A DNA stretch of 64,000 nt from Streptomyces venezuelae (GTDB taxonomy: Bacteria; Actinomycetota; Actinomycetes; Streptomycetales; Streptomycetaceae): NCBI RefSeq assembly GCF_008642315.1, contig NZ_CP029192.1, positions 2,666,001-2,730,000 on the forward strand. The letters are read 5' to 3'. Shown here piece by piece: positions 23,141 to 38,419 of the stretch (its first letter is position 1; each line of letters starts with the position of its first letter). The notes beneath the pieces are model-generated. The model did not search any database. It was not told where the DNA came from and saw nothing but the letters and a program-made list of their open reading frames with translations. The position numbers were made by a program, and so were the translations under genes.

Positions 23141-23150
23141 GCCGTACTTG

Positions 23151-23223
23151 TACCCCCGACCGGATTCGAACCGGCGCTACCGCCTTGAGAGGGCGGCGTG
23201 CTAGGCCGCTACACAACGGGGGC
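23151..23223 (-). tRNA. tRNA-Glu (CUC), copy 1
   Basis: A 73-base cloverleaf read on the minus strand: acceptor GCCCCCG/CGGGGGT, anticodon stem CCGCC/GGCGG with loop CTCTCAA (anticodon CUC), T-arm GGTTCGAATCC and discriminator A. CCA is not encoded. It appears identical in sequence to the copies at 23355 and 23490. Confidence 0.97.
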
Positions 23224-23251
23224 AAGGATCTTGTGTTGCCACACTATCCAG

Positions 23252-23323
23252 CTGGGCTACCAGGACTCGAACCTAAACTAACGGAACCAGAAACCGTCGT
23301 GCTGCCAATTACACCATAGCCCA
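23252..23323 (-). tRNA. tRNA-Gln (CUG), copy 1
   Basis: A 72-base cloverleaf on the minus strand: acceptor TGGGCTA/TAGCCCA, loop TTCTGGT with anticodon CUG, T-arm GGTTCGAGTCC, discriminator G. CCA is not encoded. Confidence 0.96.
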
Positions 23324-23427: not shown

Positions 23428-23489
23428 CCTAGCGATCCTGCATCAGTGACAGTGGGTGCGACCCGATCTGTCCCCGCGGGAAGGATCTG

Positions 23490-23562
23490 TACCCCCGACC
23501 GGATTCGAACCGGCGCTACCGCCTTGAGAGGGCGGCGTGCTAGGCCGCTACACAACGGGGGC
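23490..23562 (-). tRNA. tRNA-Glu (CUC), copy 3
   Basis: The third identical 73-base tRNA-Glu, anticodon CUC. It is second in transcription order, after the tRNA-Gln at 23623. Confidence 0.97.
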
Positions 23563-23622
23563 ATTGTGGATGTGCTCCACAGGTTGCGGATGAGATCCGC
23601 AGGTGCAGATGAGCTCTGCGAG

Positions 23623-23694
23623 CTGGCCTACCAGGACTCGAACCTAGACTAACGGAACCAGAAACCGTCGTGCTGCCAATTACACCATAGGCCA
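23623..23694 (-). tRNA. tRNA-Gln (CUG), copy 2
   Basis: A 72-base tRNA, first of the cluster in transcription order. The acceptor is TGGCCTA/TAGGCCA, so it differs from the other tRNA-Gln by a compensated G-C to C-G acceptor pair and one base in the variable region. The anticodon is CUG and the discriminator G. Confidence 0.96.
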
Positions 23695-27300: not shown

Positions 27301-27811
27301 CCCTGTAAAGCGTCAGGCTAAACATCCAATTCCCGGCCAAAGTCCGGAAGACGCCATGATCTTCGTGTGAGTTTGCTCACGAGGGAGCGGACAAAAGGGT
27401 CAATTCAGGCCCAGAGTCGACCAGTTGGAAACGGACATTGCGCCACTGAAGGCACCATTCCGCTCCTGATCATGAAGACTGGGACACCCCCCACCCGTAG
27501 AAGCTTTGTGGGGATGAGTCCGTTTTTTACTAGATCACTTTCTACGTCTCGTGACTCCGCACTCACAACGCGTCACGTAGCTCGCGGCGCGACACACGGG
27601 CCTTGTTGGAGATCCTGCACTGTGCTGGAATTCCCGGGACCGCCGCGGGATCGAACCGGCGCGCAGGGGCGCAACGCAGCGCCGAGTGGCGGCGGGGAGG
27701 GGGAGCAAGCGCCGGTCACTCACGACCACCCATGGGGCGCTGCCGCCCCACGACGCCGACACCGTCCCGCCGTTACCCGGCAGGACGCCTGGTCCAGAGG
27801 TTGCGACGCTA
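27301..27811. other. 511-base upstream region of the first conservon
   Basis: No convincing gene is seen. The region is AT-richer near 27480-27560 (TTTTTTACTAG), fitting promoter DNA. GTGAG-TTTG-CTCAC at 27367-27380 is a perfect 5-base dyad that could be an operator. Confidence 0.4.
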
Positions 27812-30800
27812 GTGCAGGGACGTTTCAAGAGGGATGGCAAGGGGTCTCCCCAGGCCGACCGCGGCCGAGGGGATGCTCCGGCGGAGCCGGAGCGTGGCTC
27901 CTCGCCCCAGCACGCCCAGAACCCCGGCCCGGGCTCGCCCGGCGACAGCGGCCCCGGCGCCGCGCGCCAAGGTGCCGTCGGCAGCGGCTCGACGGCCGCC
28001 CCGGCCAAGGGCAAGAGCAAGGGCAAGAGCGCGTCCGGAGCCGCGACACCCCCCGGCCCCGGCTCGCGAATAGCCCTGCGCAACTGGCGCATCTCCACCC
28101 GACTGGTCTCGCTGCTCGCGCTCCCCGTGATCACCGCGACCTCGCTCGGCGCGCTCCGCATCAACTCGTCCCTGGACGAGATCGAGCAGCTCGACAACAT
28201 GAAGCTGCTCACCGAGATGACCAAGCAGGCCACGGAGCTGGCCGCCGCGCTCCAGGAGGAGCGCGACAAGTCCGCGGGCCCCCTCGCGCACGGCGCGACC
28301 GCCTCGGACTACACGGTCAAGGGCGCGCGGGACAAGACCGACCGCGTCTACCGCAACTTCCTCCAGGGCACCCAGGACCTCAACGACACCGACGGCGAGA
28401 AGGGCCTCCTCGGCGTCCGGCACAGCGCGGTCCAGATCACCCAGCAGCTCCAGGGCATCAACGACGTCCGCAAGAAGGCCTTCCAGGACGAGAAGTCCAC
28501 CTCGCAGACCGTCGAGGCCTACAGCCAGCTCGTCGAGCAGCTCCTGAAGCTCTCTCAGGACATGGCGCAGGCGACGAGCAACCCGGACATGATCCAGCGC
28601 ACGCGTTCGCTGGCCGCGTTCTCCTCCGCCAAGGAGTACGCGTCCGTCCAGCGCGCGATCATCGCCGCGGCCCTGCCGGCCAACGACAGCGACTACGGCA
28701 AGATCTCCGAGACCGACCGCACCTTCGGCCTCAGCGCCAACGAAAAGGAGCGCTCGGAGCTCCAGACGTTCAGCAAGATCTACGCGGGCAACGCCGGTGA
28801 GCTGACCAAGCCCATCGACGGCGGCAACCCCGCGGTCAAGGCCGCCAACGAGTACGCCAAGCGCGTCCTCGAGCAGGAGGGCGGCATCAAGCTCCAGGAC
28901 AAGCGGTCCTACAAGGACTGGATCGACAACGACACGACCAAGATCGACGCGATGGCGAAGATCGAGCTGACGCTCCTCGGCGAGATGGAGCAGAAGGCTC
29001 GCGAGCTGCGCAACGAGTCGGAGCAGTCGGCCATCCTCAACGGTGCGCTGATCCTGCTCGTGCTCGGCGTCTCGCTCATCGGCGCGTTCGTCGTGGCCCG
29101 GTCCATGATCCGCTCGCTGCGCCGCCTCCAGGACACCGCGACCAAGGTCGCCCAGGACCGCCTGCCCGAGCTGGTCAAGCAGCTCTCGGAGTCGGACCCG
29201 CAGGACGTGGACACGTCGGTGGAGTCCGTGGGTGTGCACTCGCGCGACGAGATCGGCCAGGTGGCCGCGGCCTTCGACGACGTGCACCGCGAGGCCGTCC
29301 GCCTCGCCGCCGAGCAGGCCCTCCTGCGGGGCAACGTCAACGCGATGTTCACCAACCTCTCGCGCCGTTCGCAGGGCCTCATCCAGCGCCAGCTCTCGCT
29401 CATCTCCGAGCTGGAGTCGCGCGAGGCCGACCCGGACCAGCTGTCCTCGCTCTTCAAGCTCGACCACCTCGCGACCCGCATGCGCCGTAACGGTGAGAAC
29501 CTGCTGGTTCTGGCCGGTGAAGAGCCCGGCCGCCGGTGGACCCGACCCGTTCCGCTCGTGGACGTGCTGCGTGCCGCCGCGTCCGAGGTGGAGCAGTACG
29601 AGCGCATCGAACTCTCCTCGGTCCCCGCGACCGAGGTCGCCGGACGCGTCGTCAACGACCTCGTGCACCTCCTCGCCGAGCTGCTCGAGAACGCGACCTC
29701 GTTCTCCTCGCCGCAGACCAAGGTCAAGGTCACCGGTCACGCGCTGCCCGACGGCCGCGTGCTGATCGAGATCCACGACACCGGCATCGGCCTCTCGCCC
29801 GAGGACCTCGCGGCGATCAACGAGCGGCTCGCGTCGCCGCCCACTGTGGACGTCTCGGTCTCGCGCCGCATGGGTCTGTTCGTGGTCGGCCGTCTGTCGC
29901 AGCGCCACGGCATCCGCATCCAGCTCCGCCCGTCCGACTCCGGCGGCACGACCGCGCTGGTCATGCTTCCCGTCGACGTCGCCCAGGGCAAGAAGATGCC
30001 GGGCAAGCCCGGTGCGCCCGGTGCGACCGGCGGTCCCGCCGCGGCTCAGGCCGCCGCGGGTGCCGCGGCCGCGCGACGCGGTGTCGGTCCCGGCGGCAAC
30101 GGTGGTCCCGGCCAGGGCGGTGGCCCCGGCCGCGGTGGTCCCGCGCTCGGCGGCGGGCCCGGCGGTGGCCAGGGCGGTCCCGGACTGCTCGGTGCCGGTG
30201 CGCCGCGCCAGCAGGTCGCGGGCTCGGGTCCGCGCGCCGCGCTGCCCTCTCGTGACACCGGTCAGCAGCGTCAGCCCGGTGGTCCGCAGGCCGGTGGTCC
30301 CCAGGCCGGTGGCCCGCAGAGCGGTCAGCCGGTGGCTCCGCAGGGCAACCAGCCGGTGCGCGGGCAGGGCGGACAGGGCAACCAGTCGCAGGGCGGTCAG
30401 CCCGGTCAGCCCCAGGGCGGCCGTGGCGGCAACGCGCCGCAGCCTCCGGTGCCCCAGCAGCGTACGAACGCCATGAACCCGCCGTCGGACGCCGGTGACC
30501 AGGGCCGCAGGCCCCAGCTGCCGCCCCGCGGCGGGCCGCGCGCCGAGCTGCCCGGGGGCAACCCGCAGCCGCGCGTGCCCAGCTGGAGCGACGAGAACGC
30601 GCAGCCGCAGGTGTCGCGCGAGCCCTTCGACACCCCCCGGGGACACGAGGAGCACGAGACCAGCGGTCAGTTCCCGCAGCCCACGGCCGCGCCGTACGAC
30701 CGGCAGGGCCCCGGCTCCACCGCGGAGTTCGCCCGCCCGGACTTCGACGGTCCGCCGCCCGGCACCGCCGCGCCGCAGGACGCGGGCTCGACCGGCCAGT

Positions 30801-31774
30801 TCGTCCGCTCGGACGTCTTCGGCGGAACGGGCGCGCCCCGGCGCGGCCAGCAGCCAGGCCGTCCGGCCGCGCCGCAGAACCAGAACCAGAACCAGCAGCA
30901 ACAGCAGAACCAGCAGCAGAACCCGGGCAACGGCTTCGCGCAGCAGGGCGGTCGGGAGAACCCCGACTACACCGTGCCGCGTCCGCCGGCCCCCCGCCGC
31001 GGCCAGCACGACCCCAACCAGGGCTTCCCGCAGCAGCAGGGCCAGGGCATGGGTCAGGCGCCGCAGCAGGACCGGCAGCACCAGCCGAACCCGCAGCAGG
31101 ACCCGCTGAACCAGCAGCACGACGCGCTGAACCAGCAGCAGGACCCGCTGAACGCGCAGCTGCCGCTGCCGCCGGGCGGCCCCGACGACGGTCGTACCCC
31201 GCTGTTCGACACACTGGAGACCAACTGGTTCCAGCAGCAGAACCAGCAGAACCAGCAGAACCAGCACGCGGCGCAGCAGCAGCCCGCACAGCAGGAGCGC
31301 CAGGAGCCGCAGAACCGGCAGCCCGCGCGGCAGGACCAGCAGCAGGGTGCCCCGGCCCCCGAGGCCGGTCCGCGCCACGCCCCCGAGCCGCCGCAGCGTC
31401 CGCTCCCCTCGCGCCCCCAGCGCCAGGAACCGGCCGCCGCTCCCGCGGAGCCGGGCGGCACCAACGGCGCGGGCATGCCGAGCGGCTGGCGCTCCTCCCC
31501 CAACGACGAGCTGGGCCGGCAGGCCGAGCGCGTCCGGCAGCCCTCCGCGGGCGGCGTCACCACATCCGGACTGCCGCGTCGCGTCCCGCGGGCCAACCTG
31601 GTCGCGGGCACGGCACAGCAGCAGCAGGACAGCACAGGTCCGCAGGTTTCGCGTGCACCCGAAGAAGTACGCGGCCGGCTGACGAATCTCCGTCGGGGCA
31701 TCCAGCAGGGTCGCCAGGCCGGCACCGGCCAGACCGGTAGTTTCCCTCGCCCCACTCACCAGCAGGAGCGTTAG
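27812..31774 (+). CDS. cvnA1: Conservon sensor kinase-like protein CvnA (first set)
   Basis: A 1320-aa membrane protein. TM1 is at about 95-115 (LVSLLALPVITATSLGAL), then an extracytoplasmic nitrate/nitrite-sensing-like domain (EERDKSAGPLAHG), TM2 at about 407-430, HAMP-like linker, and HATPase_c at about 610-720 (LAELLENATSFSS N-box; DTGIGLSPED; GLFVVGRLS). The usual phospho-accepting His box is replaced by an unusual helix region. A very long disordered tail (about 735-1320) is rich in Pro, Gly, Gln and Asn, with runs like QNQNQNQQQQQNQQQN. CvnA proteins form a membrane complex with CvnB, C and D. The GTG at 27812 was chosen by homology to other CvnA starts. Confidence 0.9.
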   Translation: MQGRFKRDGKGSPQADRGRGDAPAEPERGSSPQHAQNPGPGSPGDSGPGAARQGAVGSGSTAAPAKGKSKGKSASGAATPPGPGSRIALRNWRISTRLVSLLALPVITATSLGALRINSSLDEIEQLDNMKLLTEMTKQATELAAALQEERDKSAGPLAHGATASDYTVKGARDKTDRVYRNFLQGTQDLNDTDGEKGLLGVRHSAVQITQQLQGINDVRKKAFQDEKSTSQTVEAYSQLVEQLLKLSQDMAQATSNPDMIQRTRSLAAFSSAKEYASVQRAIIAAALPANDSDYGKISETDRTFGLSANEKERSELQTFSKIYAGNAGELTKPIDGGNPAVKAANEYAKRVLEQEGGIKLQDKRSYKDWIDNDTTKIDAMAKIELTLLGEMEQKARELRNESEQSAILNGALILLVLGVSLIGAFVVARSMIRSLRRLQDTATKVAQDRLPELVKQLSESDPQDVDTSVESVGVHSRDEIGQVAAAFDDVHREAVRLAAEQALLRGNVNAMFTNLSRRSQGLIQRQLSLISELESREADPDQLSSLFKLDHLATRMRRNGENLLVLAGEEPGRRWTRPVPLVDVLRAAASEVEQYERIELSSVPATEVAGRVVNDLVHLLAELLENATSFSSPQTKVKVTGHALPDGRVLIEIHDTGIGLSPEDLAAINERLASPPTVDVSVSRRMGLFVVGRLSQRHGIRIQLRPSDSGGTTALVMLPVDVAQGKKMPGKPGAPGATGGPAAAQAAAGAAAARRGVGPGGNGGPGQGGGPGRGGPALGGGPGGGQGGPGLLGAGAPRQQVAGSGPRAALPSRDTGQQRQPGGPQAGGPQAGGPQSGQPVAPQGNQPVRGQGGQGNQSQGGQPGQPQGGRGGNAPQPPVPQQRTNAMNPPSDAGDQGRRPQLPPRGGPRAELPGGNPQPRVPSWSDENAQPQVSREPFDTPRGHEEHETSGQFPQPTAAPYDRQGPGSTAEFARPDFDGPPPGTAAPQDAGSTGQFVRSDVFGGTGAPRRGQQPGRPAAPQNQNQNQQQQQNQQQNPGNGFAQQGGRENPDYTVPRPPAPRRGQHDPNQGFPQQQGQGMGQAPQQDRQHQPNPQQDPLNQQHDALNQQQDPLNAQLPLPPGGPDDGRTPLFDTLETNWFQQQNQQNQQNQHAAQQQPAQQERQEPQNRQPARQDQQQGAPAPEAGPRHAPEPPQRPLPSRPQRQEPAAAPAEPGGTNGAGMPSGWRSSPNDELGRQAERVRQPSAGGVTTSGLPRRVPRANLVAGTAQQQQDSTGPQVSRAPEEVRGRLTNLRRGIQQGRQAGTGQTGSFPRPTHQQER

Positions 31775-32197
31775 TTGAGTCCGATGAGCCAGGCGGCACA
31801 GAATCTGAACTGGTTGATCACCAACTTCGTGGACAACACCCCCGGGGTGTCCCACACGGTCGTGGTCTCCGCCGACGGCCTCCTTCTGGCCATGTCCGAG
31901 GGGTTCCCGCGTGACCGCGCCGACCAGCTCGCCGCGGTCGCCTCGGGGCTGACCTCGCTGACCGCGGGCGCCTCCCGGATCTTCGAGGGCGGCACCGTCA
32001 CGCAGACGGTGGTGGAGATGGAGCGGGGGTTCCTCTTCATCATGTCCGTCTCGGACGGTTCGTCCCTGGCCGTGCTGGCGCACCCCGAGTGCGACATCGG
32101 CCTCGTCGGGTACGAGATGGCCCTCCTCGTCGACCGCGCGGGTGCCGTCCTCACCCCGGACCTCCGCGCCGAACTGCAGGGCAGCCTGCTCCACTAG
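31775..32197 (+). CDS. cvnB1: Roadblock/LC7-domain protein CvnB (first set)
   Basis: A 140-aa roadblock/LC7 fold (MSPMSQAAQNLNWLITNFVD; GVSHTVVVSADGLLLAMSEG) that likely regulates the partner GTPase CvnD. The start is TTG at 31775, directly after the cvnA1 stop, with AGGAG at suitable spacing. The second conservon has GTG at the equivalent place, which supports this choice over the inner ATG at 31784. Confidence 0.92.
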   Translation: MSPMSQAAQNLNWLITNFVDNTPGVSHTVVVSADGLLLAMSEGFPRDRADQLAAVASGLTSLTAGASRIFEGGTVTQTVVEMERGFLFIMSVSDGSSLAVLAHPECDIGLVGYEMALLVDRAGAVLTPDLRAELQGSLLH

Positions 32198-32337
32198 CCC
32201 GGAGCACGCTCCGAAGCCTCACCCTTCGGCCGCCCCACCGACCGAACGTACTGACCAACCGTCCGGCCGCCACACTGCCCCCACCGGCTCTGTCAGACGG
32301 CACACGCAGATGACCTGCTGTCCCGCCCGGAGGATCC

Positions 32338-32739
32338 ATGACCCCGCCCACCGCCTCTCACAACCCGTACGGCGATGCCTCGTACGGAATGGAGGGCGAC
32401 CAGCCGCTGGTGCGTCCTTACGCGATGACCGGCGGCCGGACACGGCCCCGCTACCAGCTCGCGATCGAGGCGCTGGTGAGCACCACGGCCGACCCGGCCC
32501 AGCTGATGGGTCTGCTCCCCGAGCACCAGCGGATCTGCCACCTGTGCCGTGAGGTCAAGTCGGTGGCCGAGGTCTCGGCCCTGCTCGCGATGCCGCTCGG
32601 CGTGGCCCGGATCCTCGTGGCGGACCTGGCCGAGGCCGGGCTCGTCGCCATCCATCAGCCCGGCGGCGACGAGAACGCCGGTGGCCAGCCTGACGTGACA
32701 CTGCTCGAAAGGGTGCTCAGTGGACTTCGCAAGCTCTAG
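32338..32739 (+). CDS. cvnC1: DUF742 protein CvnC (first set)
   Basis: A 133-aa DUF742 protein with a winged-helix-like core: PLVRPYAMTGGRTRP, LAIEALV, EHQRICHLCREVKSVAEVSA (two Cys) and VARILVADLAEAGLVAIHQP. It follows cvnB1 by 140 bases and overlaps cvnD1 by 20 bases, so the two are translationally coupled. GGAGG lies before the ATG. Confidence 0.92.
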   Translation: MTPPTASHNPYGDASYGMEGDQPLVRPYAMTGGRTRPRYQLAIEALVSTTADPAQLMGLLPEHQRICHLCREVKSVAEVSALLAMPLGVARILVADLAEAGLVAIHQPGGDENAGGQPDVTLLERVLSGLRKL

Positions 32740-33310
32740 CGGTTCGGGCACGGACGCGGCCCGTTCCACCACCTCCGCGAAGATCGTGGTGGCGGGCGGC
32801 TTCGGCGTGGGCAAGACCACGTTCGTCGGGGCGGTCTCCGAGATCAACCCGCTGCGCACCGAGGCCGTCATGACGTCCGCGTCCGCGGGCATCGACGACC
32901 TGACCCACACCGGAGACAAGACCACCACGACGGTGGCCATGGACTTCGGCCGCATCACCCTGGACCAGGACCTGATCCTGTACCTCTTCGGCACGCCCGG
33001 ACAGGACCGCTTCTGGTTCATGTGGGACGACCTCGTCCGTGGCGCGATCGGAGCGGTCGTCCTCGTGGACACGCGCCGCCTCGCCGACTGCTTCCCCGCG
33101 GTCGACTACTTCGAGAACTCCGGGCTCCCCTTCGTCATCGCCCTCAACGGCTTCGACGGCCACCAGCCCTACACCCCCGACGAAGTCCGCGAAGCACTCC
33201 AGATCGGACCCGGTACGCCGATCATCACGACGGACGCGCGACACCGTGCGGACGCAAAGAGTGGCTTGATCACGCTGGTCGAGCACGCACTTATGGCACG
33301 TCTCAAGTAG
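32720..33310 (+). CDS. cvnD1: Ras-like GTPase CvnD (first set)
   Basis: A 196-aa small GTPase of the MglA/Rab-like type. The P-loop is GGFGVGKTTFVG (about 26-37), switch II is LFGTPGQDRFWFMW, and the base-specificity region is ALNGFDG, where the usual NKxD is altered. It should cycle between GDP and GTP under CvnB and CvnA. Bases 32783-33210 match the other cvnD gene at all but 4 positions. Confidence 0.93.
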   Translation: MDFASSSGSGTDAARSTTSAKIVVAGGFGVGKTTFVGAVSEINPLRTEAVMTSASAGIDDLTHTGDKTTTTVAMDFGRITLDQDLILYLFGTPGQDRFWFMWDDLVRGAIGAVVLVDTRRLADCFPAVDYFENSGLPFVIALNGFDGHQPYTPDEVREALQIGPGTPIITTDARHRADAKSGLITLVEHALMARLK

Positions 33311-33455
33311 GCAGGTCCATACGGCAGTTGCCGTAGTCCATCTGGAGCGATCTGTGTCCTTTGACACGGCCCGTAACGGTGTTCATAACGTTTCGACAGA
33401 GAATTGCCCGGTGACAGACACGCGTCGCGGTCACCTGGTGTCGCTGTGCTCACAA

Positions 33456-33485
33456 GAGCCCCGCCTTTTGGCGGGGCTCGCTCTT
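33456..33485 (+). terminator. Terminator of the first conservon
   Basis: GAGCCCCGCC-TTTT-GGCGGGGCTC, a perfect 10-base stem, followed by GCTCTTT. It closes cvnA1-B1-C1-D1 and leaves cvnA2 to start its own transcript. Confidence 0.9.
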
Positions 33486-33649
33486 TATGACCGTTTTATC
33501 TGAGGCTTACACCACTCGGGGGCCGCGCTTTCCACTGTTTGGAAGAGCAGCCCCTGACGTGCTGGAATGCGCTGAACTGCCCAGTAGCACGGGCCTTGGA
33601 GACGACAGCGGCACGACGTGAGTGCCGCCGCCGAGAGGTTGTTGGTCGA

Positions 33650-36600
33650 GTGAGGCGAAGCAAGCCGAGCCCCGCGGCATCCCCCACCGGGGACACGCGG
33701 GGCAACTTCACCCCGCCGCCGCGCACAGCGGCGTCCCCCGTCGACGTGGCCGCAGGGCCGGGCAACGAGCCCCCCGCGTCTTCCGGCGGACGGATGTCCC
33801 CCCGCAACTGGCGCGTGCCGACCCGCCTGAACGCGATCCTGCTCATACCCGTGCTCGTGGGCCTGGTCATGGGCGGTTTCCAGGTCAAGGGCTCCATCGA
33901 CACCTGGAGCGAGGCCCAGGACGCCGAGAACACCGCCCGCCTCGTGCGGGCGTCGCTGAACTACGGCAACCGTCTCATCGAGGAGCGCGACATCACCGCC
34001 GCTCCGCTGCTGAGCGGCAAGCGCAACGACGCCACGGTCATCAAGGCGCGCAAGGCCACCGACAAGGCAGCCGCCGAGTTCAAGTCCGCGACGGAGAGCA
34101 TGCCGGACAAGGAGGGCCTCAACCGTCGTCTCGACGCCTTCCACAAGGTCGAGCCGAAGCTCGGCCCGCTGCGTCAGGCCGCGTACACCACCAAGCTTCC
34201 CGGTGTGAAGACCGAAGAGGGCTACGTCGCCATCCAGCACCCGCTGATGGAGTTCGCCAACGAGCTCGGTCTGGGCACCGGCAACATCACCAGCTACGGC
34301 CGCACCGTCTACGCGATCTCCCTCTCCAAGGCAGCGCTCTCCCTGCAGCGGTCCATCGGCACGCACCTCCTGGTGGAGCCGGGCCCCGGCACCGGTTCGT
34401 TCACGCTCCAGCGCACCTCGTTCTCCTCGTACGCCTACCTGGAGCGCATCGCCATCGAGGAGTACACCGGCGGCGGCACCCCCGAGGACGTCGCCAAGCT
34501 GGAGGCGGCCAAGAAGGAGCTGGCGGCCGCCGCCAAGAAGCAGGGCGGCCCGGCCCTCTCGCAGGACAAGATGGTCGCGGCCATCGCCACCATGCCGAGC
34601 ACCCAGCCGAGCGCCCGCGTCGAGCTGGCCGGCAAGGGCATCACGCGTGAGGCCTGGTGGGCCACCACCACCGCCAAGTTCGACGCGTACCGCACCATCG
34701 AGTCGGACCTCGCCGACAAGGCCGTGGACGAGGCGTCCGACATCGCCGCCAACGCCCAGCGCAACGCCTACATCACCGGCGCCATCGTCGTCCTCGCGCT
34801 GCTCGCCGCGTTCATCCTGGCCGGGCTCATGGCCCGCCAGATGTCGAAGTCGATGCGCCGGCTGCGCACCGCCGCCTTCGGCATCGCCGAGCAGCGTCTG
34901 CCGATGCTGGTCGACCAGCTGTCGCGCACCGACCCGGGCCGCGTCGACACCCGCGTGCAGCCCATCCCGATCAACTCCACGGACGAGATCGGCGAGGTCG
35001 CCCGCGCCTTCGACCAGGTGCACCGCGAGGCCGTGCGGCTCGCCGCCGAGCAGGCGCTGCTCCGCGGCAACATCAACGCGATCTTCACCAACCTGTCGCG
35101 CCGCAACCAGTCGCTGATCGAGGGCCAGCTGACCCTCATCACCGACCTGGAGAACAACGAGGCCGACCCGGACCAGCTGGAGAACCTCTTCCGCCTGGAC
35201 CACCTGGCGACCCGTATGCGCCGCAACGGCGAGAACCTCCTCGTCCTCTCCGGCGAGGAGCCGGGCCGCCGCTGGGACCAGCCGGTCCCGCTGGTCGACG
35301 TGTTGCGCGCCGCCTCCTCCGAGGTGGAGCAGTACGAGCGCATCGAGCTGGAGGGCGTGCCGGAGGCCGAGATCCACGGCCTCGCCGTGACCGACCTCGT
35401 GCACCTGCTCGCCGAGCTCCTGGAGAACGCGACGACGTTCTCCTCGCCGCAGACCAAGGTGCGGGTCACCGCGACCCGGCTGCCCGACGGCCGCGTCATG
35501 GTCGAGATCCACGACAAGGGCATCGGCCTCACCGCCGAGGACTTCGCGGACATCAACCACAAGCTGGCCAACCCGCCGACCGTGGACGCCGCGATCTCGC
35601 AGCGCATGGGCCTGTTCGTGGTCGGCCGCCTCTCCGACCGGCACGGCATCCGCGTGCAGCTGCGCCCCTCGGGCGAGCAGGCGGGCACGACGTCGCTGGT
35701 CATGCTGCCGGACGCGATCACGCACGGTGGCGGTGGCGAGCACGCCTCGCAGGACCCCGAGTTCACGGTCTCCTCGATCATCCCGGAGCAGCAGGCGCTG
35801 GCGCCCGAGCCGATGCGCACCGCCGCCGAGCTGGGCTTCGACGACAGCCGCTACCACGGTGACGGCTCCGAGGGGCAGCACGAGCTGGACCCGGTCGGCC
35901 GCTCGCTCATGCGTGAGGAGCGCCGCGCGGCCCTGGAGGCGCAGGCCCAGCAGCCCGGCGCTCACCGTCCGCTCTTCCGCGACGAGGTCGAGCCGCAGCA
36001 GAGCGGCTACGAGCAGCAGGCCCCGGCCTACGACGACCAGCAGCAGGTCGCGTACGACCAGGGCGTGCGGTACGACAACGAGCAGTACGCCACCGGTCAG
36101 TACCCGGCCCCGCAGTACGCCGAGGACGGTTACCGCGAGGAGCAGTACAGGACCGAGCAGTACCCGGCGGATCAGCAGTACTACCAGGACCAGCAGATCG
36201 CCTATCCGGAGCGCTCCGGTCAGGACGACTGGCCCTCCGCCGACGGCTATCAGCCGGAGTACGGCCAGGAAGCGGAATCTGCGCAGGCGGACCACACGGC
36301 CGACGCCGAGCGCGTAGGCTTCGACCGGCCGGGTCCGGCGCCGTCCGTCGTCCACGACATGACCGACGCGGGCCTCCCCCGCAGGGGTTCCTCCGGCGCG
36401 AACGGCAACGGAAGCGGCCACGGCGGTTCGCCCGCCGCGAGCGAGGGCCAGGACGACTGGCGCTCGTCCAACGACGAGCGCTGGCAGCGAGCCGAGCGCC
36501 TCAAGGAGCCGAAGGCGGGCGGGGTCACCTCGTCGGGGCTCCCGCGGCGGGTGCCCAAGGCCAATCTGGTCGAGGGCACCGCGGAACAGACCCCACAGGG

Positions 36601-36745
36601 CGGCCCCCAGGTCTCCCGCGACCCCGAGGACGTGCGGGGCAGGCTGAGCAACCTACGCCGCGGCGTCCAGCGGGGCCGCAGCGCAGGAAGTGACACGAAT
36701 GGCCAGGGCTTCAGCCCTGATAGCACCTACAACCAGGAGCGTTAG
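33650..36745 (+). CDS. cvnA2: Conservon sensor kinase-like protein CvnA (second set)
   Basis: A 1031-aa protein with the same plan as cvnA1: TM1 about 58-78 (AILLIPVLVGLVMGGF), a sensing domain with LIEERDITAAPLLSG, TM2 about 374-395, HAMP-like linker, HATPase_c about 580-690 (LAELLENATTFSS; DKGIGLTAED). The disordered tail is shorter, rich in Gln and Tyr (SGYEQQAPAYDDQQQVAYDQ). GTG 33650 begins VRRSKPSPAASPTG, as I recall for Streptomyces orthologues. The longer open frame upstream lacks support. Confidence 0.9.
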   Translation: MRRSKPSPAASPTGDTRGNFTPPPRTAASPVDVAAGPGNEPPASSGGRMSPRNWRVPTRLNAILLIPVLVGLVMGGFQVKGSIDTWSEAQDAENTARLVRASLNYGNRLIEERDITAAPLLSGKRNDATVIKARKATDKAAAEFKSATESMPDKEGLNRRLDAFHKVEPKLGPLRQAAYTTKLPGVKTEEGYVAIQHPLMEFANELGLGTGNITSYGRTVYAISLSKAALSLQRSIGTHLLVEPGPGTGSFTLQRTSFSSYAYLERIAIEEYTGGGTPEDVAKLEAAKKELAAAAKKQGGPALSQDKMVAAIATMPSTQPSARVELAGKGITREAWWATTTAKFDAYRTIESDLADKAVDEASDIAANAQRNAYITGAIVVLALLAAFILAGLMARQMSKSMRRLRTAAFGIAEQRLPMLVDQLSRTDPGRVDTRVQPIPINSTDEIGEVARAFDQVHREAVRLAAEQALLRGNINAIFTNLSRRNQSLIEGQLTLITDLENNEADPDQLENLFRLDHLATRMRRNGENLLVLSGEEPGRRWDQPVPLVDVLRAASSEVEQYERIELEGVPEAEIHGLAVTDLVHLLAELLENATTFSSPQTKVRVTATRLPDGRVMVEIHDKGIGLTAEDFADINHKLANPPTVDAAISQRMGLFVVGRLSDRHGIRVQLRPSGEQAGTTSLVMLPDAITHGGGGEHASQDPEFTVSSIIPEQQALAPEPMRTAAELGFDDSRYHGDGSEGQHELDPVGRSLMREERRAALEAQAQQPGAHRPLFRDEVEPQQSGYEQQAPAYDDQQQVAYDQGVRYDNEQYATGQYPAPQYAEDGYREEQYRTEQYPADQQYYQDQQIAYPERSGQDDWPSADGYQPEYGQEAESAQADHTADAERVGFDRPGPAPSVVHDMTDAGLPRRGSSGANGNGSGHGGSPAASEGQDDWRSSNDERWQRAERLKEPKAGGVTSSGLPRRVPKANLVEGTAEQTPQGGPQVSRDPEDVRGRLSNLRRGVQRGRSAGSDTNGQGFSPDSTYNQER

Positions 36746-36746
36746 T

Positions 36747-37169
36747 GTGAGCCCGATGAGCCAGGCGGCGCAGAACCTCAACTGGTTGATCACCAACTTC
36801 GTGGACAACACCCCCGGGGTGTCCCACACGGTGGTGGTCTCCGCCGACGGACTCCTCCTCGCGATGTCCGAGGGCTTCCCCCGCGACCGCGCGGACCAGC
36901 TCGCGGCCGTCGCCTCGGGTCTGACCTCGCTGACCGCGGGGGCGTCCCGGATCTTCGAGGGCGGCTCCGTGACCCAGACCGTTGTGGAGATGGAGCGAGG
37001 ATTTCTCTTCATCATGTCCATCTCCGACGGCTCCTCGCTCGCCGTTCTCGCCCACCCGGATGCGGACATCGGTCTCGTTGGGTACGAAATGGCACTTCTT
37101 GTCGATCGTGCGGGCACGGTACTCACTCCGGACCTCCGCGCGGAGCTCCAGGGGAGCCTTCTCAACTAA
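36747..37169 (+). CDS. cvnB2: Roadblock/LC7-domain protein CvnB (second set)
   Basis: A 140-aa paralogue of cvnB1, almost identical in protein sequence. GTG 36747 follows the cvnA2 stop by one base with AGGAG upstream. It probably acts on the CvnD GTPase of this set, though cross-talk with the first set is plausible given the similarity. Confidence 0.93.
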   Translation: MSPMSQAAQNLNWLITNFVDNTPGVSHTVVVSADGLLLAMSEGFPRDRADQLAAVASGLTSLTAGASRIFEGGSVTQTVVEMERGFLFIMSISDGSSLAVLAHPDADIGLVGYEMALLVDRAGTVLTPDLRAELQGSLLN

Positions 37170-37263
37170 CAGACAGACGGTGCGTTTTCGCGCCTCGTGG
37201 CCGTAAGGTTCGGGACGCGGCTCCACAGTGATGGTGCCCGGCACAGTTGGAGGAGGAAGCAAC

Positions 37264-37854
37264 GTGGCAACACCCCCAGACGGTTCGTCATCGGCGAACT
37301 GGTCCCCTGGCCACGGCCAGGGCGGCCAGCACGACGGCGGCCCGAACAGGTACAACTTCCCCTCCGCTCCGAGCCACCGCCGCCAGCCGTACGCGCAGCC
37401 CCAGCAGCCCGGGCCGCGTCCGTACGACCAGGGCACCCCGGCGCGTGCGCCCCGTATCCAGCCCGTACAACCCCAGCGGCGCGCCCCCGAACCGGCGCCC
37501 GCGGGGTCGGCGAACAACCCCCTGGTGCGCCCGTACGCCATGACGGGCGGCCGCACCAGGCCCCGTTACCAGCTCGCCATCGAGGCACTGGTGCACACCA
37601 CGGCACAACCGCATCAGTTGCAGGGCCAGTTGCCCGAGCATCAGCGCATCTGCAACCTGTGCCGGGAGATCAAGTCGGTCGCCGAGATCTCGGCGCTGCT
37701 CTCCATCCCCCTCGGCGTCGCCCGGATCCTCGTAGCCGACCTGGCGGAGGCCGGGCTCGTCGCCATCCATCAGCCCGGCGGCGACGAGACCGCCGGCGGC
37801 CAGCCAGACGTGACACTGCTCGAAAGGGTGCTCAGTGGACTTCGCAAGCTCTAG
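37264..37854 (+). CDS. cvnC2: DUF742 protein CvnC with extended N-terminus (second set)
   Basis: A 196-aa protein: a disordered Pro/Gln-rich N-terminal extension of about 80 residues, absent from cvnC1, then the DUF742 core (NPLVRPYAMTGGRTRPRYQL; EHQRICNLCREIKSVAEISA). GTG 37264 has a strong GGAGGAGGA upstream. It overlaps cvnD2 by 20 bases, exactly as in the first set. Confidence 0.93.
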   Translation: MATPPDGSSSANWSPGHGQGGQHDGGPNRYNFPSAPSHRRQPYAQPQQPGPRPYDQGTPARAPRIQPVQPQRRAPEPAPAGSANNPLVRPYAMTGGRTRPRYQLAIEALVHTTAQPHQLQGQLPEHQRICNLCREIKSVAEISALLSIPLGVARILVADLAEAGLVAIHQPGGDETAGGQPDVTLLERVLSGLRKL

Positions 37855-38419
37855 CGGCGGAGCAACAGCCCGCTCCACCACCAGCGCGAAAATCGTGGTG
37901 GCGGGCGGCTTCGGCGTGGGCAAGACCACGTTCGTCGGGGCGGTCTCTGAGATCAACCCGCTGCGCACCGAGGCCGTCATGACGTCCGCGTCCGCGGGCA
38001 TCGACGACCTGACCCACACCGGAGACAAGACCACCACGACGGTGGCCATGGACTTCGGCCGCATCACCCTGGACCAGGACCTGATCCTGTACCTCTTCGG
38101 CACGCCCGGACAGGACCGCTTCTGGTTCATGTGGGACGACCTCGTCCGTGGCGCGATCGGAGCGGTCGTCCTGGTCGACACCCGCCGCCTCGCCGACTGC
38201 TTCCCCGCGGTCGACTACTTCGAGAACTCCGGGCTCCCCTTCGTCATCGCCCTCAACGGCTTCGACGGCCACCAGCCCTACACCCCCGACGAAGTCCGCG
38301 AAGCACTCCAGATCGGACCGGACACCCCGATCATCACGACCGACGCGCGACACCGCGCGGACGCGAAGAGCGCGCTGATCACGCTGGTCGAGCACGCGCT
38401 GATGGCGCGGCTCCGATAG
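37835..38419 (+). CDS. cvnD2: Ras-like GTPase CvnD (second set)
   Basis: A 194-aa GTPase. From the P-loop (GGFGVGKTTFVG) to near the C-terminus its protein is identical to CvnD1; only the Ser-rich N-terminus and a few C-terminal residues differ. Such identity, greater than in the cvnA genes, suggests recent sequence exchange. Confidence 0.93.
   Translation: MDFASSSGGATARSTTSAKIVVAGGFGVGKTTFVGAVSEINPLRTEAVMTSASAGIDDLTHTGDKTTTTVAMDFGRITLDQDLILYLFGTPGQDRFWFMWDDLVRGAIGAVVLVDTRRLADCFPAVDYFENSGLPFVIALNGFDGHQPYTPDEVREALQIGPDTPIITTDARHRADAKSALITLVEHALMARLR

What the first reader, a model, noticed from the sequence alone, without database searches (positions are those of the whole stretch)
32783..38319. 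428-base near-identical tract between the two cvnD genes: likely gene conversion
Bases 32783-33210 (cvnD1) and 37892-38319 (cvnD2) differ at only 4 positions by my count, all silent, while their flanks (Ser-rich N-terminus and last codons) differ freely and the cvnA pair is clearly diverged. Identity at third-codon positions is more than selection on protein would give, so recent gene conversion is the likely cause. The GTPase and perhaps CvnC/B are then kept interchangeable between two membrane complexes with different sensors.
Basis: partly seen in the sequence, partly recalled or inferred. Interest (0 to 1): 0.7.

Follow-up and report, generated by a model that had tools for sequence, protein, structure and literature searches.

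The report
Switch gene repeatedly copied between twins
In this soil bacterium two neighbouring signalling operons carry a nearly letter-for-letter identical switch gene because one copy has probably overwritten the other recently, and related bacteria show that this has happened many times to the switch gene but not to the sensor gene beside it.

Summary
In detail: 32783-33210 and 37892-38319 differ at 4 of 428 bases, all silent third positions. Silent divergence (pS) of the pair is 0.037 in the cvnD core against 0.40 (kinase), 0.47 (cvnB) and 0.42 (cvnC). The gene is a mosaic: its ends group by locus with a related species, the tract groups cvnD1 with cvnD2 of its own genome. It recurs: the two cvnD copies are sisters on the tree in 39 of 116 Streptomyces pairs, cvnC in 0 of 114, the kinase in 0 of 103, cvnB in 6 of 114. 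In 34 near-complete genomes the 426-base core differs by 10 bases or fewer in 11 and by none in 5. It reaches other genera, where cvnB is converted too. Gene conversion is well supported, here probably cvnD2 to cvnD1. The functional claim is not shown: every Streptomyces pair keeps 93% or more of its GTPase residues, and cvnD has most exact-match seeds, so a by-product explains most of it. It is a new member of a known kind, recurrent concerted evolution, absent from a published table of 26 such genes.

The parts
32783..33210 (+). Converted tract in cvnD1, outer bounds (codons 22-164 of D1; from the P-loop to about 17 residues past the NGFDG motif)
   Evidence: 4 of 428 differences to 37892-38319, all silent
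37892..38319 (+). Converted tract in cvnD2, outer bounds; the more likely donor copy
   Evidence: direction
32840..33063 (+). Longest exact run in cvnD1 (224 nt); safest minimal tract
37949..38172 (+). Longest exact run in cvnD2 (224 nt), partner of 32840-33063
33074..33210 (+). Second exact run in cvnD1 (137 nt), separated from the first by three silent differences within 10 nt
38183..38319 (+). Second exact run in cvnD2, partner of 33074-33210
27686..31774 (+). cvnA1, sensor kinase-like protein (NIT, HAMP, HATPase_c); start codon not verified
31784..32197 (+). cvnB1, Roadblock/LC7 (MglB-like) protein
32338..32739 (+). cvnC1, DUF742 protein; overlaps the start of cvnD1 by 20 nt
32720..33310 (+). 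cvnD1, Ras-like (MglA-type) GTPase, probable recipient
   Evidence: PF03029; Ras/MglA type from the conservon literature
33539..36745 (+). cvnA2, sensor kinase-like protein (NIT, HATPase_c; HAMP below cutoff); start codon not verified
36756..37169 (+). cvnB2, Roadblock/LC7 protein, 131 of 137 residues as cvnB1 but silent divergence 0.47
37228..37854 (+). cvnC2, DUF742 protein with a longer N-terminus; overlaps cvnD2 by 20 nt; start codon not verified
37835..38419 (+). cvnD2, Ras-like (MglA-type) GTPase, probable donor
   Evidence: PF03029; Ras/MglA type from the conservon literature

Best explanation
Two old tandem conservons (probably the cvn1 and cvn2 of S. coelicolor) have diverged at their sensor kinase and cvnC genes, but their GTPase genes are repeatedly overwritten by one another through intrachromosomal gene conversion. 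In this genome a tract of at most 428 bp (224 bp exact at least) was copied between cvnD2 and cvnD1, probably from D2 into D1, after the split from the nearest relative in the sample (S. atriruber, L011). Shown: near-identity, silent-site drop, mosaic ends, recurrence in many species, restriction to cvnD and, mainly outside Streptomyces, cvnB. Inferred: a RecA-type homologous repair event using the 5.1 kb-distant copy as template; ends set by loss of homology at the linker and the 3' end; the cause being mainly the long exact matches that protein constraint leaves in cvnD, so that conversion is largely a by-product of the same constraint that keeps the proteins alike.
For: pS of the window pair: D core 0.037; kinase 0.399, B 0.470, C codons 1-75 0.422. 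Against L011 the ends of cvnD group by locus (5': D1-D1 0.098, D2-D2 0.000; 3': 0.080 and 0.037; crosswise 0.39-0.56), while in the tract the window's two copies are 0.033 apart and 0.19-0.26 from L011's. Trees (FastTree, midpoint root) of Streptomyces pairs: D core 39 own-genome sister pairs of 116 (22 with support 0.9 or more, 6 with no value because the copies are identical) and 52 copy-label changes; C 0 of 114 and 1 change; kinase 0 of 103 and 1; B 6 of 114 and 13. Near-complete genomes, 34 pairs: D 18 and 24, B 4 and 9, C and kinase 0 and 1; 11 of 34 cores differ by 10 nt or fewer, 5 by none. The ratio of within-genome to between-genome D1-D2 silent divergence falls to 0.20-0.30 at D codons 73-111 and stays 0.88-1.05 in the kinase. 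Permutation test: p at most 0.002 in 50 of 101 genomes, 49 of the 50 with the longest run in cvnD or spanning C-D, 1 in B. Wider family: D 50 sister pairs in 132, B 22 in 142, C 2 in 140, kinase 0 in 131. Direction: 10 of 15 callable converted genomes D2-like, 2 D1-like, 3 mixed.
Against: Not all sister pairs on a 426-nt tree are well supported (11 of 39 have support under 0.9), and 52 label changes are probably inflated by near-saturated silent sites. Three differences within 10 nt inside the tract mean it may be two tracts. Direction is inferred from distances; 2 of 12 unconverted mates of the window disagree, and D2 was slightly less diverged between species than D1 in the first sample (0.291 and 0.318), which leans calls toward D2. 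The by-product cause does not explain everything: in Streptomyces cvnB and the kinase have the same seed density (2.4 and 2.6 per kb), yet B has 6 sister pairs of 114 and the kinase 0 of 103. The recombination mechanism itself is inferred.
Confidence: 0.93

Rival explanations
1. Selection for a shared or interchangeable G-protein: conversion events in cvnD (and cvnB) are favoured because both sensors must feed the same GTPase switch, while conversions of the kinase are selected against. (A rival for the cause; the conversion itself is the same.)
For: The module split is sharp: D and B, the switch and its roadblock partner, are homogenised; the kinase has pS below 0.10 in 0 of 131 pairs, although some kinase pairs outside Streptomyces have exact runs of 59-91 nt and up to 7.9 runs of 25 nt or more per kb. 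In Streptomyces B and kinase have equal seed density but B converts in some genomes and the kinase in none. No D core residue tells D1 from D2 (no core site with mutual information above 0.5) against 52 of 211 kinase, 10 of 111 C and 3 of 137 B sites.
Against: Seed density gives nearly the observed ranking without selection: runs of 25 nt or more per kb in the more diverged half of Streptomyces pairs are D 8.2, kinase 2.6, B 2.4, C 0.7; cvnB in other genera, where it converts, has 4.9-12.2 per kb in the 8 pairs with pS above 0.19. All 116 Streptomyces pairs share 93% or more of D residues, so conversion is not needed for interchangeability.
Confidence: 0.3
2. Recent duplication of the whole conservon or of cvnD.
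For: Tandem head-to-tail arrangement.
Against: cvnA, B and C of the pair are diverged, and kinase and cvnC cluster by locus with a single label change among Streptomyces; the kinase does so in the family sample too, cvnC with 4 changes. So the duplication predates the genus and, by the kinase, the sampled family.
Confidence: 0.02
3. Selection on codons or RNA structure keeps both copies identical at silent sites without recombination.
For: cvnD protein is strongly conserved and the P-loop part has low silent divergence even between species (0.17 at codons 17-31).
Against: The same silent sites differ between species: median between-species pS of the D core is 0.318 (D1) and 0.291 (D2) in 60 genomes against 0.037 within the window genome, and several pairs within single genomes reach 0.30-0.40.
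Confidence: 0.02
4. Assembly artefact: reads of a collapsed repeat were placed in both copies.
For: Contig ends of the named loci pile up in cvnD: 13 of 27 left ends and 13 of 35 right ends that lie within 9 kb. Unresolved bases sit inside cvnD1 in L144 and L090, and L111 has a doubled segment with an unresolved codon; the tools also mask some stretches as N, so these need not all be scaffold gaps.
Against: The window is in a single 8.94 Mb contig and the copies differ at 4 tract sites and on both sides, so they are resolved. The pattern holds in 34 near-complete genomes. Contig breaks at cvnD are themselves what true near-identity produces.
Confidence: 0.03
5. Both copies received the same tract from another species by transfer.
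For: The tract is further from L011 (0.19-0.26) than most of its flanks are.
Against: Needs two events, or transfer followed by conversion anyway. In same-locus comparisons with 59 other genomes the nearest D core is 0.131 away, and on the tree of 232 copies the window's two are sisters. Opposite direction of conversion in the two lineages would also give the larger distance.
Confidence: 0.04

Closest known systems
Long-lasting recurrent concerted evolution in prokaryotes (Wang and Chen 2018, PMC6053082; 26 genes, among them tuf, psbA/psbD, amoCAB)
   Same: Paralogues in one genome closer than orthologues, at silent sites too, in many species, with an old duplication; most of the 26 encode members of complexes (abstract, passages and section 6 with Tables 1-2 read).
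   Different: cvnD and cvnB are not in Tables 1 or 2, and the only GTPase there is EF-Tu. Here only some genes of a tandem operon pair are homogenised, often over part of the gene.
tufA/tufB gene conversion in Salmonella (PMC5485169)
   Different: tuf copies are 762 kb apart and inverted and differ at 12 positions; cvnD copies are 5.1 kb apart in tandem, in different operons, about 10% diverged (mean 0.900 nt identity in the more diverged half of pairs).
Conservons of Streptomyces (cvn1, SCO5544; cvn2, SCO5540), MglA/MglB-like systems
   Same: Same four genes in order; CvnA1 and CvnA2 are listed four locus numbers apart in S. coelicolor, as expected of this tandem (PMC9739842, passages).
   Different: No paper in the held library has both 'conservon' and 'gene conversion'. 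The closest statement seen is that adjacent duplicated conservons exist, one having lost its mglA (PMC4316618, passages).
Large tandem modules elsewhere in the same chromosome (megasynthase-like; label recalled from the layout, not tested)
   Same: Long exact runs inside diverged tandem repeats (293 nt at 2191577-2203542).
   Different: Repeats of kilobase modules rather than one gene of a signalling operon.

Membership tests
Conservon (cvnABCD) | Sensor kinase-like CvnA with sensor, HAMP and HATPase | tested here: met
   NIT and HATPase_c in both, HAMP above cutoff in cvnA1 only (22.5 bits against a cutoff of 25 in cvnA2)
Conservon (cvnABCD) | Roadblock CvnB, DUF742 CvnC and GTPase CvnD following in order | tested here: met
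   Robl_LC7, DUF742 and PF03029 in both operons, in order
Conservon (cvnABCD) | Identity with cvn1/cvn2 of S. coelicolor by sequence | not tested
   Inferred from tandem arrangement and locus numbers SCO5544 and SCO5540; the sequences were not compared
Intragenomic gene conversion tract | Local drop of silent divergence between paralogues | tested here: met
   0.037 against 0.40-0.47 in the neighbouring genes; permutation p = 5e-5
Intragenomic gene conversion tract | Mosaic: ends group by locus, tract by genome | tested here: met
   Distances; tree
Intragenomic gene conversion tract | Non-reciprocal, with an identifiable donor | tested here: inconclusive
   Closer to D2 in 10 of 12 unconverted mates; cvnD1 closer to D2 in 10 of 13 clade mates, to D1 in 2, 1 tie
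Recurrent concerted evolution | Seen in at least five species with duplication older than the species | tested here: met
   D copies sisters in 39 of 116 Streptomyces pairs; kinase and C one label change each
Recurrent concerted evolution | Demonstrated recombination between the copies | not testable with these tools
   Needs a marked-copy assay
Recent tandem duplication | All genes of the repeat equally similar | tested here: not met

The most novel reading that the evidence does not exclude
Conservons 1 and 2 of the Streptomyces family work as two different receptors on one common G-protein: selection favours each conversion that keeps CvnD (and CvnB) the same in both complexes and rejects conversions of the sensor, so gene conversion is the maintenance mechanism of a many-receptors, one-switch circuit.
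Probability: 0.25. Interest if true: 0.75.

Novelty: new member of a known kind. Interest (0 to 1): 0.5.

Why it matters
It adds a signalling GTPase to a short list of bacterial genes kept alike by recurrent gene conversion, in an operon pair whose kinase and cvnC genes diverge, so the same locus carries its own internal controls. It makes two things directly testable: whether the Cvn1 and Cvn2 sensors share one pool of GTPase, and how actinomycete recombination (which, from recall, lacks MutS/MutL repair) acts on copies about 10% diverged. It also has practical consequences: contigs often end at cvnD in draft assemblies, cvnD is unsafe for phylogeny or qPCR, and a cvnD1 knockout might be masked by cvnD2 or repaired from it (inference).

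Tried and rejected
Rejected: whole-operon duplication (locus-wise kinase and cvnC trees); silent constraint (silent sites differ between species); collapse of reads as the sole cause (single contig, 4 differences, near-complete genomes); conversion with the other eight cvnD-like matches of the chromosome (50-75% residue identity; not aligned further).

Mistake found and mended: the cvnC query began one base late, so the cvnC figures are out of frame and are not used; cvnC was redone in frame.

Rows dropped: of 140 loci (139 fetched and the window) 24 lacked a clean pair of D genes (contig ends, frameshifts, unresolved bases, low identity), leaving 116; 15 of these lacked another gene and were not (101 tested). 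Of 36 near-complete genomes 2 (L097, L103) dropped out. Of 20 loci from other genera L157, L158, L162 and L169 gave no D pair under my thresholds. Since near-identical pairs break short-read contigs, the dropped drafts are probably enriched in converted pairs.

Led nowhere: no sequence match of CvnD to a solved structure, so motif positions rest on recalled G-motif patterns; the genome search with cvnA2 gave machine errors. NCBIfam gave only kinase-general hits far below cutoff for CvnA and none for B, C, D. No structure prediction, protein-database search or RNA search was run.
Full report
WHAT IS THERE. The window lies in a single 8,942,078-base contig (G000:C1:2666001-2730000). It holds two head-to-tail conservons: a NIT/HATPase sensor kinase-like gene (HAMP above cutoff only in the first), a Roadblock/LC7 gene, a DUF742 gene and a GTPase gene, twice (27686-33310 and 33539-38419). 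Each cvnD coding region overlaps the end of its cvnC by 20 bases. The chromosome has ten cvnD-like matches; apart from this pair they are 50-75% identical in residues to cvnD2.

CHECK OF THE OBSERVATION. Bases 32783-33210 and 37892-38319 differ at 4 of 428 positions, all third positions, with identical residues. Outside the tract, as aligned, cvnD differs at 12 positions in nt 1-57 and at 18 in nt 486-582 of the cvnD2 CDS, apart from an insertion in the linker. Nei-Gojobori pS for whole genes of this pair is A 0.444, B 0.470, C 0.356, D 0.164; over the D core (cvnD2 codons 20-161) it is 0.037, against kinase 0.399, B 0.470 and C codons 1-75 0.422. A permutation test on 331 silent informative codons over kinase, B, C and D puts the longest concordant run (41 codons) at cvnD codons 41-112, p = 5e-5 with 20000 permutations. 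The longest exact run is 224 nt; a second of 137 nt follows after three silent differences in 10 nt, so one tract with later changes and two tracts are both possible.

MOSAIC ANCESTRY. I fetched 80 named loci around relatives of cvnA2. Against the closest, Streptomyces atriruber (L011), the ends of cvnD follow the locus: 5' end D1-D1 0.098 and D2-D2 0.000, 3' end 0.080 and 0.037, crosswise 0.39-0.56. Inside the tract the order breaks: the window's two copies are 0.033 apart, while they are 0.188-0.255 from L011's copies. cvnB orthologues of the two species are 0.176 and 0.084 apart, so I infer that the event is younger than that split. The window's cvnD1 tract is nearer to the mates' D2 in 10 of 13 clade mates, nearer to D1 in 2, tie in 1, hence D2 to D1 as the likelier direction. 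Of 30 genomes with tract pS under 0.10, 15 had at least four unconverted relatives to compare: 10 D2-like, 2 D1-like, 3 mixed.

RECURRENCE. Trees: D core, 39 genomes with sister copies and 52 label changes; cvnC 0 and 1 (114 pairs); kinase 0 and 1 (103 pairs); cvnB 6 and 13 (114 pairs). Of the 39, 22 have support of 0.9 or more and 6 carry no value because the copies are identical. In the 34 near-complete genomes (5 contigs or fewer) with a pair, of 36, medians of pS are D core 0.136, B 0.380, C 0.388, kinase 0.326; 11 cores differ by 10 nt or fewer and 5 by none, while 23 of 34 differ by more than 10 and up to 47. So conversion is episodic, not constant. Some tracts are longer than the window's: 699 nt exact in L096, reaching back into cvnC, 588 in L137, 537 in L099. 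The last codon still differs in L096, L099 and L102, whose cores are identical, as expected if homology ends there. In L137 cvnB is homogenised too (pS 0.009).

PROFILE. In near-complete genomes the silent divergence of copy 1 against copy 2 within a genome, divided by that between genomes, is 0.88-1.05 along the kinase, 0.69-0.92 in B, 0.69-1.05 in C and 0.20-0.64 from D codon 17 on, lowest at codons 73-111, which hold the TPGQ motif (G3, name recalled).

BEYOND THE GENUS. In a family search 34 of 51 genomes of other genera had at least two cvnB matches. I took 20 loci with two cvnB matches some 5-7 kb apart; 16 gave a D pair. D copies are sisters in 10 of these 16, B copies in 16 of 20, C copies in 2 (L152, L153), kinase copies in none; the joint trees with Streptomyces give D 50 sister pairs in 132, B 22 in 142, C 2 in 140, kinase 0 in 131, and label changes of 63, 30, 4 and 1. 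So by the kinase the duplication is older than the sampled family, and B joins D as a converted gene there, including identity over all 411 bases in L153.

CONTEXT. In 1.2 Mb of the same chromosome (2.0-3.2 Mb, 13% of it) 120 homologous pairs of 200 nt or more were found, 74 of them within 15 kb; 3 have an exact run of 100 nt or more, this one being third. The first is a 906-nt identical direct repeat, the second lies in large repeated modules; neither was studied. So such a tract is unusual in the part seen.

ASSEMBLIES. Among same-genus genomes (counted by hand, G000 and G013 once), all 37 listed with 10 contigs or fewer gave at least two cvnD matches at E of 1e-80 or less, while of 57 with more contigs 15 gave none and 5 gave one; 2 of the 15 are under 90% complete. 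Contig ends of the named loci pile up in cvnD: 13 of 27 left ends and 13 of 35 right ends within 9 kb. This is what a near-identical repeat does to short reads, and suggests that draft sets under-report converted pairs.

WHY cvnD. Two causes compete. Seeds: in the more diverged half of Streptomyces pairs, exact runs of 25 nt or more per kb are D 8.2, kinase 2.6, B 2.4, C 0.7, and cvnB in other genera has 4.9-12.2 per kb in the 8 pairs with pS above 0.19. That puts D first without selection for sameness. Selection: no core D residue distinguishes the copies, against 52 of 211 kinase sites; B and kinase have equal seed density in Streptomyces, yet only B shows sister pairs; and kinase pairs in other genera never convert although some have runs of 59-91 nt. 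But all 116 Streptomyces pairs share 93% or more of D residues, so purifying selection alone keeps the proteins nearly the same. I put by-product first, selection second; selection against kinase conversion, rather than for cvnD conversion, would fit both sets of facts.

LITERATURE. CvnA1 is SCO5544 and CvnA2 SCO5540 in S. coelicolor (PMC9739842, passages), which fits this tandem; [quoted passage not shown] No held paper has both 'conservon' and 'gene conversion'; six have 'conservon' and 'recombination', seen as a listing only. The published list of 26 recurrently converted prokaryote genes does not hold cvnD or cvnB (PMC6053082, Tables 1-2). Most subscription papers are not in the library, so this is not proof of novelty.

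VERDICT. The functional reading remains open.

Noticed in passing
L219 15368-16273 and 19074-19979 (own chromosome 2995368-2996273 and 2999074-2999979, outside the window): A 906-nt direct repeat identical in every base, 3.7 kb apart, just after a gene that looks like a WD40-repeat protein (label recalled).
   Followed up: no
own chromosome 2191577-2203542, outside the window: Large tandem modules about 75-82% identical with an exact run of 293 nt, another conversion-like patch.
   Followed up: no
window 23149-23323 and 23488-23694: A short direct repeat with a 76-nt exact run (2689149 and 2689488 on the chromosome).
   Followed up: no
G148:C1:3047186, 3048367 and 3053694: A genome of another genus with three cvnB matches, two only 1.2 kb apart, a possible rearrangement of the tandem.
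   Followed up: no
L153, L160, L161, L163, L168: Outside Streptomyces cvnB can be fully or nearly identical between the conservons while cvnD is not, the reverse of the window.
   Followed up: partly
L152: A genome where cvnB, cvnC and cvnD are all homogenised (pS 0.009, 0.062, 0.009) while the kinase is not (0.198).
   Followed up: no
L103 (G027), cvnD2; L097 (G012), cvnD1: Two near-complete genomes in which one cvnD copy cannot be read in a single frame; real or sequencing error not decided.
   Followed up: partly
PMC3123327, expression table: An array study lists cvn2 with 3 genes and cvn1 with 4; one cvn2 gene may have lacked a unique probe because of the cvnD identity. This is a guess.
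   Followed up: no
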